Source: Hyphomonadaceae bacterium
GTDB taxonomy: Bacteria > Pseudomonadota > Alphaproteobacteria > Caulobacterales > Hyphomonadaceae
Assembly: GCA_022844345.1 (NCBI GenBank)
Contig: JALHLU010000001.1
Location: 62,001 to 126,000 of the forward strand
Reading direction: 5' to 3'
DNA: 64,000 nt
This document shows, piece after piece, positions 58,447 through 62,053 of the stretch. The position numbers were made by a program, and so were the translations under genes. The notes under the pieces were generated by a model. That model worked only from the letters and a program-made list of their open reading frames with translations, was not told where the DNA came from and made no database searches. The stretch's first letter is position 1. Each line of letters starts with the position of its first letter.

Positions 58447-59841
58447 ATGGCCGCGAATAACCGCACCGAAACGGATACTTTTGGCCCGATCGAGGTCGCG
58501 GCTGACCGGTATTGGGGCGCGCAGGCGCAGCGTTCGCTCGGAAACTTCAAGATCGGCTGGGAAAAGCAGCCCGCCCCGATCGTCCGCGCCCTGGGCATCG
58601 TCAAGCGCGCCGCCGCCGAAGCGAATATGGAGCTGGAAAAGCTCGACCCCAAACTCGGCAAGACCATCGTCAAAGCGGCGCAGGAAGTCATCGACGGCAA
58701 GCTGAACGATCACTTCCCCCTCGTCGTCTGGCAGACAGGGTCAGGCACCCAGTCCAACATGAACGCCAACGAGGTGATCTCGAACCGCGCCATCGAGATG
58801 CTGGGCGGCGTGATGGGCTCGAAGAAGCCCGTCCACCCGAACGACCACGTCAATATGAGCCAGTCGTCGAACGACACCTTCCCGACCGCGATGCACATCG
58901 CCTGCGCCGAACAAATCTCGACCGACCTTCTCCCTGCCCTTGAGCATCTGCATGCCGCGCTGAAGGCCAAGTCGAAAGCCTGGGCCAAGATCATCAAGAT
59001 CGGCCGTACGCACACACAGGATGCAACGCCGCTCACCCTCGGCCAGGAATTCGGCGGTTACGCCAAGCAGATCGAGAACGGTATCGCGCGCATCAAGTCG
59101 ACCATGCCCTCGCTGATGGAACTGGCGCAGGGCGGCACCGCCGTCGGCACCGGCCTCAACGCGCCGAAAGGCTTCGACAAGCTGGTCGCCGCTAAGATCG
59201 CGGAGATCACCGGCCTCGCATTCAAGACGGCGCCGAACAAGTTCGAAGCGCTCGCCGCACACGATGCGATGGTGATGAGTCATGGCGCGATCACCACGGT
59301 CGCCGCGTCCTGCTTCAAGATCGCCAACGACATCCGCTTCCTCGGGTCGGGCCCGCGCGCGGGCCTCGGCGAACTGGCGCTACCCGAGAACGAACCCGGC
59401 TCATCAATCATGCCGGGCAAGGTGAATCCGACGCAGTGCGAAGCCCTCACGCAGGTCTGCGCCCATATCATGGGCAACAACGCCGCCATCGCGTTCGCTG
59501 GATCGCAAGGCCATTTCGAACTCAACGTCTTCAACCCGATGATGGCCTACAACTTCCTGCAGTCCGTCCGCCTGCTTGCTGACGCCGCGATCTCGTTCAC
59601 CGACAACTGCGTCGTCGGCATCGAGCCGCGCATCGACAATATCGCGAAGGGCGTCGAGAACTCGCTGATGCTGGTCACCGCCCTCAACGAACGCCTCGGC
59701 TACGACGCCTGCGCCAAGATCGCGAAGACCGCCCACAAGAACGGCACGACGCTGCGCGAGGAAGCCGTCGGCGGCGGCTATCTGACCGACGCCGAGTTCA
59801 CGAAATTGGTGCGCCCGGAGAAGATGATCGGGCCGAAATAG
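58447..59841 (+). CDS. fumC: Class II fumarate hydratase
   Basis: Protein of 464 residues, standard length. [49 protein letters not shown] and the signature [16 protein letters not shown] are all present, with the catalytic Ser in the last. It hydrates fumarate to malate in the TCA cycle, in the cytosol. Its last codons ([10 protein letters not shown]-like [10 protein letters not shown]) occur again in a decayed copy about 900 bases downstream. Confidence 0.97.
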
Positions 59842-59864: not shown

Positions 59865-60614
59865 TTGGGCGTCGATCTCTACGCTGGCCCGCTCGCCAGG
59901 TACTATTCTGGCGAATGGGAAACGCAGGCGGCAGCTTGGGCGCGAGCAAATGGGGTCGCGTTCGAGACAGTCTATTCGAGCAGTCCACCCAACCGGCTCA
60001 GTCCAGATGAAAGCGCCGAAGCGGTTCAGGCGTTTCGAACCAGAGTCGCGCCGAAGCTGGGCGTATTGCCCCAATGGTCAAAAGCCTCTGATCCCTACGA
60101 AATCTATCAACTACGCGCGGAGGGATTTAGTAGTGTTGTGCTCGCCGCGGCCCTTCTCCATCGTCCGGAGCTGAAGCGGCCGACAAAGATACCCGTCGAT
60201 ATCCAAGAGCATCCGGCAGTCTCCGAAGCATCAACGCGGGGCTACTATATCGGCCCGATGGCAGCGTTCGAAGCGCAGGTCATCGTTCCGGGAGAAGAGC
60301 CGCGCATTTGCGGCGAAACGGACTGTCGAGGAGGCGACGTTGTCGTCGTCACCCTTTCGGTACTGCAAGATGCCGTCGAAGCCGTTCGGGTGTTCCTTGG
60401 ATTTTCCGCACAGCAGCTCGATGCAATCTTGGCAAAAGGCCCACCAGAGTCAGGACCCGAGATCGCAGTCCCAGCCAAGACCGGCTGGATCTTCTCGAAG
60501 CCCAAGTACGTTCAGGACGAATTTTTGGAATGGGCTGGCTGGGGGCTTGCTTGCTTTCGCGCATGCGCCCGCTTCGCACAAGATACCGGTGCTGCGATCA
60601 TCCGAGACGAATAG
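59865..60614 (+). CDS. Hypothetical protein inserted after fumC
   Basis: Protein of 249 residues starting at TTG 59865 (MGVDLYAGPLARYYSGEWET), 23 bases after fumC, with TGGGGG upstream. VDLYAGPLARYYSG is reminiscent of a conserved but uncharacterised bacterial family. The middle (VSEASTRGYYIGPMAAFEAQVIVPGEEPRI) and VVVTLSVLQDAVEAVRVFLGF are unremarkable. Codon use is less GC-biased than in fumC. A decayed copy of the fumC end lies directly after it, so it probably entered by insertion or recombination at fumC. No function assignable. Confidence 0.75.
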   Translation: MGVDLYAGPLARYYSGEWETQAAAWARANGVAFETVYSSSPPNRLSPDESAEAVQAFRTRVAPKLGVLPQWSKASDPYEIYQLRAEGFSSVVLAAALLHRPELKRPTKIPVDIQEHPAVSEASTRGYYIGPMAAFEAQVIVPGEEPRICGETDCRGGDVVVVTLSVLQDAVEAVRVFLGFSAQQLDAILAKGPPESGPEIAVPAKTGWIFSKPKYVQDEFLEWAGWGLACFRACARFAQDTGAAIIRDE

Positions 60615-60659
60615 AACCAATTCGAACGGCGGCTGACCCTGCTGCGTGATCGTCGCTGG

Positions 60660-60748
60660 CTGGGTGAAGAAACCGTCAGCAGCGGCTATCGACCGAAGCC
60701 GAGTGCACGACGCTGGCGCGCCCGGAGAAGATGATCGGACCGAAGTAA
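60660..60748 (+). pseudogene. Decayed duplicate of the fumC 3' end
   Basis: LGEETVSSGY followed, after a one-base frameshift, by [18 protein letters not shown] and a TAA stop mirrors the fumC terminus [10 protein letters not shown] and [18 protein letters not shown]. At the DNA level CGCCCGGAGAAGATGATCGG is identical in both places. It is the scar of a former or duplicated fumC end, now separated from fumC by the gene at 59865. Confidence 0.85.
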
Positions 60749-60802
60749 AGTCCGACAGCAGGGGACGTCGACGGCGGCCACATAATGTAGTATACGTTTT
60801 GT

Positions 60803-61267
60803 ATGAATCTTCGCGCTTGGCGGAAAACTGAGGGGCTGCAGGCGGAAGAGGCCGCGATACGATTTGGGGTAAGGCCGTCAACTTTGCTTGCCTACGAAAA
60901 GGGTGCTCGTCGCCCCCGATTGGAGGTTGCCAATAGAATTGAGGCAGCCACACGCGGCGAAGTCACCGCCGCCTCCCTGCTCGGCCTTTCCGAATCCACG
61001 CCCCGCAAGCGCGGCGTCCGCGAAGACGCGGCAGCTTTCGACGGAGCATCGCGCCTGACAATCGACGTGACGATCCCGCCTGAACGCGCCAAGGCGCTTC
61101 GGGACAGCGGCGCCGATATCAGCGCCATCGCCCGCGCTGGCGCCGAGAAAGCACTGAAGGAAGCCGAGGCCAAGGCATGGGCCGAAGCCAACCGCGAAGC
61201 CATCGAGGCCAGCAATGCCTGGATCGAGAAGCACGGGACATTCGCCGAACAGTTCGGGCTCATCTGA
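60803..61267 (+). CDS. XRE HTH-CcdA fusion antitoxin
   Basis: Protein of 154 residues. Residues 1-60 form an XRE-type HTH (MNLRAWRKTEGLQAEEAAIRF, then GVRPSTLLAYEKGARRPRLE). From about 84 to the end is a complete CcdA-like antitoxin: RLTIDVTIPPERAKALRDSG as the ribbon-helix-helix and AKAWAEANREAIEASNAWIEKHG as the toxin-binding tail. It overlaps the CcdB-like toxin gene by one base (TGATG). CcdA proteins normally have only the second part, about 70-80 residues, so this one carries two DNA-binding domains. The AT-rich TAGTATACG before the start may be promoter or operator. Confidence 0.82.
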   Translation: MNLRAWRKTEGLQAEEAAIRFGVRPSTLLAYEKGARRPRLEVANRIEAATRGEVTAASLLGLSESTPRKRGVREDAAAFDGASRLTIDVTIPPERAKALRDSGADISAIARAGAEKALKEAEAKAWAEANREAIEASNAWIEKHGTFAEQFGLI

Positions 61268-61572
61268 TGGCCCGACTCGATGTGCGGCGCCTGCGAGGAC
61301 CAAAGACGCGCGTCAGCCTCGTGCTGGAACTCCAGTCTGACTACATGCGGGACCTGCCGACAGTGTTGGTGGCGCCCCTGCTCGGGGTGAAGCAACTGAA
61401 GGCGTACGACGGCATCAACTCGCTTCTGAAGATCGGCGACGTTGAGTACGCAGTGCGATTGGAGCAGATGGCAGGCGTGCCTGCAGCCATGCTTGGAGAA
61501 CGCGTAGGTTCAGCTGCCCACCTCGAAGCAAGCGTTTCCAGCGCCATCAACCGCATGCTCTTCTACGTGTGA
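61267..61572 (+). CDS. CcdB-like toxin
   Basis: Protein of 101 residues, exactly the length of CcdB. VSLVLELQSDYMRDLPTVLVAPLL, then YDGINSLLKIGDVEYAVRLEQMAGVPAAMLGERVGS match the CcdB/MazF-like fold in order. CcdB poisons DNA gyrase; its C-terminus normally ends WGI and here reads MLFYV, so gyrase activity is not assured. The start overlaps the antitoxin stop. The ORF track gives a longer N-terminus, which is out of the family pattern. Confidence 0.82.
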   Translation: MARLDVRRLRGPKTRVSLVLELQSDYMRDLPTVLVAPLLGVKQLKAYDGINSLLKIGDVEYAVRLEQMAGVPAAMLGERVGSAAHLEASVSSAINRMLFYV

Positions 61573-61690
61573 TCGAGCCGAAGTAGTTTGAAATCGCCGT
61601 TACACTGAAAGCGCACTATCTTCCTCTTCGAACATCGCTGGCAGGCGCCCGGAAAGTGGAGCACGCCAGCACTAGTCAGGAGGAATGATC

Positions 61691-62053
61691 ATGCGTCTGA
61701 CACTCGCCACCGTCGTTGCGGCAACACTGTCGACCGCCGCCATCACCGGAACCGCCTTCGCCCACCACGGATGGGAAACCTACGATGCGGCGAAGCAGCA
61801 GAAGGTCACGGGAACCATCGCCGAGCTGAAATGGGAACAGCCCCACGCGGTCCTCTGGATCACGGTGAAAGGCGTGCGCCAGGAGGTCTGGCTTTCCCCT
61901 CTCCAGCGCATGGTTGATCGCGGCCTGCGCAAGGAGGACCTCACGGTGGGGAAGAGCGTGACGGTCGACGTCCAGCCCCACACCAAGAACGCCAATGAGT
62001 GGAAGGCCCACTCCATAATGCTCGATGGCCGAACCGTTGATTTGATGCGCTGA
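61691..62053 (+). CDS. DUF6152 secreted protein
   Basis: Protein of 120 residues with signal MRLTLATVVAATLSTAAITGTAFA; the mature part begins HHGWETYDAAKQQKVTGTI, the DUF6152 signature, and ends IMLDGRTVDLMR. AGGAGGA lies seven bases before ATG 61691 and only one or two before ATG 61685, so 61691 is the likely start. Function unknown. DUF6152 genes often occur near the unnamed secreted family seen three times here. A His-rich mature N-terminus suggests a metal or extracellular role. Confidence 0.82.
   Translation: MRLTLATVVAATLSTAAITGTAFAHHGWETYDAAKQQKVTGTIAELKWEQPHAVLWITVKGVRQEVWLSPLQRMVDRGLRKEDLTVGKSVTVDVQPHTKNANEWKAHSIMLDGRTVDLMR

What the first reader, a model, noticed from the sequence alone, without database searches (positions are those of the whole stretch)
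60803..61572. CcdA antitoxin fused to an XRE helix-turn-helix domain
The antitoxin has a full XRE HTH (residues 1-60) in front of a complete ribbon-helix-helix CcdA with its toxin-binding tail. Classical CcdA relies on the ribbon-helix-helix alone. Two DNA-binding domains could change operator recognition, cooperativity or cross-regulation of other loci. The toxin ends MLFYV instead of the gyrase-contacting WGI, so the target may also differ.
Basis: partly seen in the sequence, partly recalled or inferred. Interest (0 to 1): 0.66.

Follow-up and report, generated by a model that had tools for sequence, protein, structure and literature searches.

The report
Antitoxin with a swappable DNA-binding head
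This bacterial gene pair makes a gyrase-poison-like toxin (CcdB fold) and its antidote, and in this bacterial family the DNA-binding end of the antidote, together with the DNA site it probably binds, appears to be swapped as one block at a fixed chromosomal spot, so the antidote's old DNA-binding part has apparently been retired.

Summary
The fusion is real. The antitoxin (60803-61267) has an XRE helix-turn-helix (HTH) in front of a CcdA domain. It is followed, with 1 nt overlap, by a CcdB-fold toxin (61267-61572).

It is not a one-off. 23 of 105 genomes of the window's GTDB family, plus two Roseomonas-group genomes, carry HTH-CcdA fusions, all followed by CcdB. All 23 lie downstream of fumC, as do 8 of 9 unfused ccdA genes of the family.

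The 'two DNA-binding domains' reading is not favoured. In fusions the ribbon that CcdA uses to touch DNA has lost its signature, the TGCGCA operator common to unfused loci is absent (0/25 versus 61/68), and the Shine-Dalgarno is gone. Instead there is a -35-like TTG exactly 35 nt before the ATG and often an inverted repeat, whose sequence tracks the HTH type and not the toxin.

At one site, pairs of genomes have flanks, CcdA tail and CcdB 70-100% identical but an operator+HTH block only about 20-60% identical: a cassette swap.

The toxin's missing Gly100 (FYV) is confined to this genus. Toxicity, DNA binding and the reason for swapping are untested. I rate it a new variant of a known kind.

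The parts
60803..60982 (+). XRE/Cro-type HTH domain of the antitoxin (residues 1-60; helices 3-10, 14-21, 25-33, 40-49, 56-59)
   Evidence: Pfam HTH_3 and HTH_31; AlphaFold2 model m274015c8e7e1 pLDDT about 90 over this part; Foldseek to SinR, YdaS, DdrO, CylR2, HigA HTHs, domain-level only, E above 0.03
61013..61039 (+). linker motif GVREDAAAF (residues 71-79), conserved as G[VLMF]xExxxxF in most fusions whatever the HTH type
   Evidence: alignment A1 and motif list; E74 nearly invariant
61055..61267 (+). CcdA domain (residues 85-154 and stop): degenerate ribbon (T86/D88/T90 where F-plasmid CcdA has R4/T6/T8), helices, toxin-binding tail
   Evidence: Pfam CcdA E 1e-13; ribbon comparison of 25 fused and 67 unfused sequences
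61267..61572 (+). CcdB-fold toxin, C-terminus FYV
   Evidence: Pfam CcdB; AlphaFold2 pLDDT 91; Foldseek best hits are all E. coli and V. fischeri CcdB, TM about 0.75-0.89
60784..60798 (+). putative XRE operator AATGTA-GTA-TACGTT, imperfect inverted repeat overlapping the -10-like TATACG
   Evidence: perfect repeat in L032 at the same place (shuffle p 0.003) but p 0.33 in the window alone; 12-nt core identical in L032, TGTAGTAT shared with L037 whose HTH is 48% identical; single exact copy in the genome
60768..60796 (+). putative promoter of a leaderless mRNA: -35-like TCGACG (60768-60773), -10-like TATACG (60791-60796), start expected at the ATG
   Evidence: 22 of 25 fusions have TTG at -36 to -34 of the ATG (2.5% in background), none has a Shine-Dalgarno; the window's own -35 is one mismatch off TTG and the consensus promoter scan found nothing
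58447..59841 (+). fumC (fumarate hydratase), the fixed upstream neighbour of these ccdAB loci
   Evidence: name from own knowledge of the sequence family

Best explanation
A chromosomal type II toxin-antitoxin module of the CcdAB kind in which a Cro/YdaS-like XRE HTH, joined through a linker with a conserved G[VLM]xExxxxF motif, has taken over operator binding from the CcdA ribbon. The HTH, as a dimer, would bind an inverted repeat lying over the -10 region of a leaderless promoter and repress xre-ccdA-ccdB. The CcdA part would keep dimerisation and the tail that wraps CcdB, and toxin binding would modulate repression as in other CcdAB modules. The module sits at a fixed site 3' of fumC, and the 5' block (operator + HTH) is exchanged as a unit by recombination while CcdA tail, CcdB and flanks stay. 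Shown: the fusion, pairing with CcdB, fixed site, block replacement, loss of ribbon signature, correlation of operator with HTH. Inferred: DNA binding by the HTH, no DNA binding by the ribbon, autoregulation, neutralisation, toxicity and target.
For: (1) Both domains above curated cut-offs, separately too; HTH codons under purifying selection. (2) Fusions in 23/105 family genomes and 2 Roseomonas-group genomes, all followed by CcdB. (3) Ribbon positions: N/S at -15 in 67/67 unfused and 2/25 fused; S/T at -13 in 64/67 and 4/25; K/R at -19 in 65/66 and 4/25; the N of the 'GLN' loop is D/E in 24/25 fused. (4) TGCGCA upstream in 61/68 unfused, 0/25 fused, 9% background. (5) Inverted repeats before the ATG: 13/25 fused with shuffle p<0.05. 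(6) Operator similarity follows HTH identity (partial r 0.71, Mantel p 0.0002), hardly CcdB identity (partial r 0.20, p 0.01). (7) L034/L039: fumC flank and CcdA-tail/CcdB DNA about 85-100% identical, block -40 to +280 only 30-65%; likewise L035/L074, L035/L041, L041/L074, L044/L078, L057/L075 at somewhat lower flank identity. (8) Identity of CcdB tracks CcdA tail (r 0.83) but not HTH (r 0.22). (9) No Shine-Dalgarno in 25/25 fused.
Against: No experiment. The window's own inverted repeat is not significant alone (p 0.33) and its -35 is degenerate; the window keeps R84 and T90 of the ribbon signature. F-plasmid CcdA is described as binding a 6-bp palindrome downstream of the -10 (PMC3920265), recalled from memory as GTATAC, and the window has GTATAC at 60790-60795. 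The toxin lacks Gly100. Most unfused controls come from other families (8 are from the same family and site).
Confidence: 0.72

Rival explanations
1. Both domains bind DNA: the XRE and the CcdA ribbon occupy adjacent or overlapping sites and act cooperatively.
For: The window's ribbon keeps alternating hydrophobic residues plus R84 and T90; GTATAC lies in the operator and resembles the F-plasmid CcdA site as recalled; other antitoxin complexes with paired DNA-binding units exist (Xre-RES, PMC12204516).
Against: D88 stands where all 67 unfused CcdAs have N/S; the ribbon's face is T/E/A in L032 and T/T/P in L033 and it evolves fast (pN 0.34-0.36); about half the fusions have no ribbon-like strand at all. 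L033 has nearly the same CcdA part but another HTH, and lacks GTATAC. L037 lacks the ribbon yet shares TGTAGTAT.
Confidence: 0.13
2. The toxin of this genus is attenuated or no longer a gyrase poison, and the pair now works mainly as a regulator or as an antidote module. (Compatible with the best explanation of the antitoxin.)
For: Gly100 is present in 22/25 fusion-paired and 51/54 other CcdBs but is Y in the window and L032 and R in L033. The last three residues W99-G100-I101 are reported as responsible for E. coli CcdB toxicity, and a truncated Photorhabdus CcdB-like protein was not toxic (PMC7905540).
Against: CcdB is under purifying selection (dN/dS 0.13 versus L032), and the fold, including the C-terminal helix, is intact.
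Confidence: 0.3
3. The fusion is an annotation or assembly artefact, or a later start makes an ordinary CcdA.
For: No Shine-Dalgarno before 60803; a TTG at codon 28 exists.
Against: Same architecture in 25 genomes at fixed spacing to the -35; HTH codons conserved; a leaderless start explains the missing Shine-Dalgarno.
Confidence: 0.02

Closest known systems
F-plasmid and V. fischeri CcdAB (PF07362/PF01845)
   Same: Gene order, size, CcdA tail, CcdB fold (TM about 0.75-0.89)
   Different: DNA binding there is by the N-terminal ribbon-helix-helix; here an XRE HTH precedes it, the ribbon's DNA face is degenerate, the operator differs, and Gly100 of CcdB is missing in this genus
XRE-type antitoxins (HigA, HipB, Xre of Xre-RES)
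   Same: XRE HTH controls the operon and is linked to a toxin-binding part
   Different: Unrelated toxin-binding parts; the toxin here is CcdB
HicB antitoxins fused to either RHH or Xre domains (Makarova et al. 2009, PMC2701414)
   Same: One toxin-binding module combined with alternative DNA-binding domains
   Different: There HicB itself is probably not a DNA-binder; here one DNA-binding fold replaces another, and the operator moves with it at a fixed site
Three-component TA modules (PaaR-PaaA-ParE, omega-epsilon-zeta)
   Same: Regulation and neutralisation are split between different units
   Different: Here the two units are fused in one protein
Lambdoid phage immunity regions (own knowledge, not checked here)
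   Same: Repressor DNA-binding part and operators exchanged as a cassette
   Different: Here at a fixed chromosomal toxin-antitoxin locus

Membership tests
CcdAB type II toxin-antitoxin modules | CcdA-family antitoxin above family cut-off, directly upstream of CcdB | tested here: met
   Pfam scores and 1-nt overlap
CcdAB type II toxin-antitoxin modules | CcdB fold | tested here: met
   AlphaFold2 and Foldseek
CcdAB type II toxin-antitoxin modules | Operator bound by the ribbon-helix-helix of CcdA | tested here: inconclusive
   Ribbon signature and the TGCGCA operator of unfused loci absent, but no binding test possible
CcdAB type II toxin-antitoxin modules | Toxin is neutralised by the antitoxin | not testable with these tools
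   needs expression experiments
CcdB gyrase poisons | C-terminal W99-G100-I101 needed for poisoning in E. coli CcdB | tested here: not met
   FYV in window and L032, SRT in L033; Gly100 kept in 73 of 79 CcdBs compared
XRE/Cro HTH regulators | Five-helix XRE HTH fold | tested here: met
   Pfam HTH_3, model and Foldseek
XRE/Cro HTH regulators | Binds an inverted repeat at its own promoter | tested here: inconclusive
   Inverted repeats found and correlated with HTH type; window repeat alone not significant; binding untested

The most novel reading that the evidence does not exclude
At a fixed chromosomal site (3' of fumC) a ccdAB module behaves like a phage immunity region: operator plus DNA-binding domain form an exchangeable specificity cassette (16 HTH types in 25 loci, and possibly also the ribbon form), swapped by recombination while toxin and toxin-binding tail stay, under selection to escape regulation in trans by other alleles or by invading elements.
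Probability: 0.3. Interest if true: 0.8.

Novelty: new variant of a known kind. Interest (0 to 1): 0.6.

Why it matters
That antitoxins mix DNA-binding and toxin-binding parts is textbook, but it is usually inferred from distant homologues. Here it can be read at nucleotide level at one chromosomal address: pairs with near-identical toxins and flanks carry unrelated DNA-binding domains, each with its own candidate operator, and the old ribbon decays. That gives a natural experiment on how repressor and operator co-evolve, whether a ribbon-helix-helix can be demoted to a dimerisation and toxin-binding role, and why a toxin-antitoxin locus would change its regulatory specificity. The papers searched described no XRE-CcdA fusion.

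Tried and rejected
Plasmid collection: no match to the antitoxin; CcdB matches only distant CcdBs, mostly F-type. Phages: one XRE regulator, no fusion. PADLOC: only generic HTH hits (capH, HTH_VI), not taken as evidence of defence. Regulon idea: operator core unique in the genome, rejected. Consensus promoter scan found nothing in the window. dS is saturated between most window/L032 segments, so ratios there are given as pN/pS only. The antitoxin model has low pTM (0.40) and is a monomer, so absence of a beta strand in it is not used as evidence against the ribbon. Photorhabdus XreR1/XreR2 with ccdAB-like genes (PMC7905540) are separate genes, not fusions.

Full report
1. Observation. The antitoxin ORF 60803-61267 and toxin ORF 61267-61572 are as described. 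Pfam places HTH_3 at residues 3-50 and CcdA at residues 86-150, both above curated cut-offs and also when the halves are scanned alone; the toxin matches CcdB. NCBIfam's CcdA and CcdB equivalog models match weakly, below cut-off. HTH codons are conserved in frame against L032 (pN 0.14, pS 0.84), so the XRE part is translated as far as sequence can show. The own genome has one CcdA.

2. How common. A search of 398 genomes of the order and all 105 held genomes of the window's GTDB family found full-length fusions in 23 family genomes; a separate scan of GTDB species genomes added two Roseomonas-group genomes. In a 399-genome sample of the phylum no full-length fusion appeared outside the family. 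All fusions are followed directly by a CcdB-like ORF. On a tree of CcdB plus CcdA tail the fusions need at least two changes.

3. Fixed site. In all 23 family fusions the antitoxin starts after the 3' end of fumC: about 40-110 nt after it in 20, and about 800-960 nt after it in three with an insertion (window, L081, L088). Eight of nine unfused ccdA genes of the family also lie within 3.5 kb of fumC. In several TA-less relatives the next gene's flank lies roughly 50-150 nt from fumC, i.e. an empty site, and other genomes have different cargo there.

4. Cassette replacement. DNA comparison at this site shows a block from about -40 to +280 of the antitoxin gene with about 20-65% identity between flanks of much higher identity: about 85-100% in L034/L039, and roughly 70-97% in L035/L074, L035/L041, L041/L074, L044/L078 and L057/L075; L038/L039, with the same HTH, shows no such block. 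Pairwise identity of CcdB follows that of the CcdA tail (r 0.83) but hardly that of the HTH (r 0.22). The 25 fusions hold 16 HTH types at 60% identity. In the window's genus, L033 has the same CcdA part (pN 0.17) but another HTH (pN 0.44) and another CcdB (pN 0.47).

5. The ribbon has decayed. Counting back from the loop between the CcdA helices, unfused CcdAs have N or S at -15 (67/67), S or T at -13 (64/67) and K or R at -19 (65/66); fusions have 2/25, 4/25 and 4/25. The loop's N is D or E in 24/25 fusions. These positions correspond to T6, T8 and K2 of F-plasmid CcdA in my alignment; that the ribbon face contacts DNA rests on the published ribbon-helix-helix mode (reviewed in PMC3920265) and on general knowledge. 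The window itself is T86/D88/T90 with R84 kept.

6. Operators and promoters. Unfused loci carry TGCGCA upstream (61/68, background 9%), fusions never do (0/25; Fisher p 1e-16, not corrected for relatedness). Fusions have no Shine-Dalgarno (0/25) against 46/68 unfused, a TTG at -36 to -34 of the ATG in 22/25 against 2.5% in background, and an inverted repeat before the ATG with shuffle p<0.05 in 13/25. This fits a leaderless promoter with the repeat over the -10. Operator similarity tracks HTH identity (partial r 0.71 given CcdB identity, Mantel p 0.0002), CcdB identity only weakly (partial r 0.20, p 0.01). For the window, the repeat AATGTA-GTA-TACGTT (60784-60798) is not significant alone (p 0.33); its support is the perfect version in L032, the shared TGTAGTAT in L037 and the position. 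The core is unique in the genome.

7. Toxin. The model (pLDDT 91) matches E. coli and V. fischeri CcdB best, MazF less well. Trp99 is not conserved even in V. fischeri CcdB (ends TGI), so its absence means little; Gly100 is conserved in 73 of 79 CcdBs compared and is lost in all three fusion loci of this genus. PMC7905540 states that the last three residues cause CcdB toxicity in E. coli. CcdB is nevertheless under purifying selection (dN/dS 0.13). Target and toxicity remain open.

8. What is known. The literature searches found modularity of antitoxins, HicB fused to RHH or Xre (PMC2701414), partner swapping (PMC10440598) and complexes with two DNA-binding units (PMC12204516), but no XRE-CcdA fusion and no operator+HTH cassette exchange at a toxin-antitoxin locus. 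Subscription papers are mostly not in that library, so absence there is weak evidence.

9. Caveats. Loci are related, so p values are indicative; most unfused controls come from other families, though eight are from the same family and site.

Noticed in passing
59751-59840 and 60659-60747: The 3' end of fumC is duplicated (81-86% identical): a roughly 850-900 bp insertion, which includes one copy of the fumC tail, separates fumC from the toxin-antitoxin locus in this genome.
   Followed up: partly
59865-60614 (+): 249-aa ORF inside that insertion, no Pfam or PADLOC match; a homologue by eye lies directly after fumC in another genome of the family (L138, 124-870) without ccdAB.
   Followed up: partly
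L129-L208, first 3 kb after fumC: The fumC 3' side is a general insertion site in this family: other genomes carry GNAT-like, methyltransferase-like, AAA-ATPase-like and uncharacterised small ORFs there (names from reading the sequences, not scanned).
   Followed up: partly
61013-61039 and alignment A1: Linker motif G[VLMF]xExxxxF between HTH and CcdA is kept across unrelated HTH types; function unknown. A stand-alone XRE protein in the same genome (L119, 129-605) has a similar stretch RRGAAEDAADF.
   Followed up: partly
L084-L091 versus L034-L088: Unfused ribbon-type CcdAs nest inside the fused clade on the CcdB/CcdA-tail tree, so the ribbon form may itself be one of the exchanged cassettes.
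   Followed up: no
61685-62053 (+): DUF6152 protein downstream of the toxin; in several TA-less relatives of the genus its gene follows fumC directly.
   Followed up: partly
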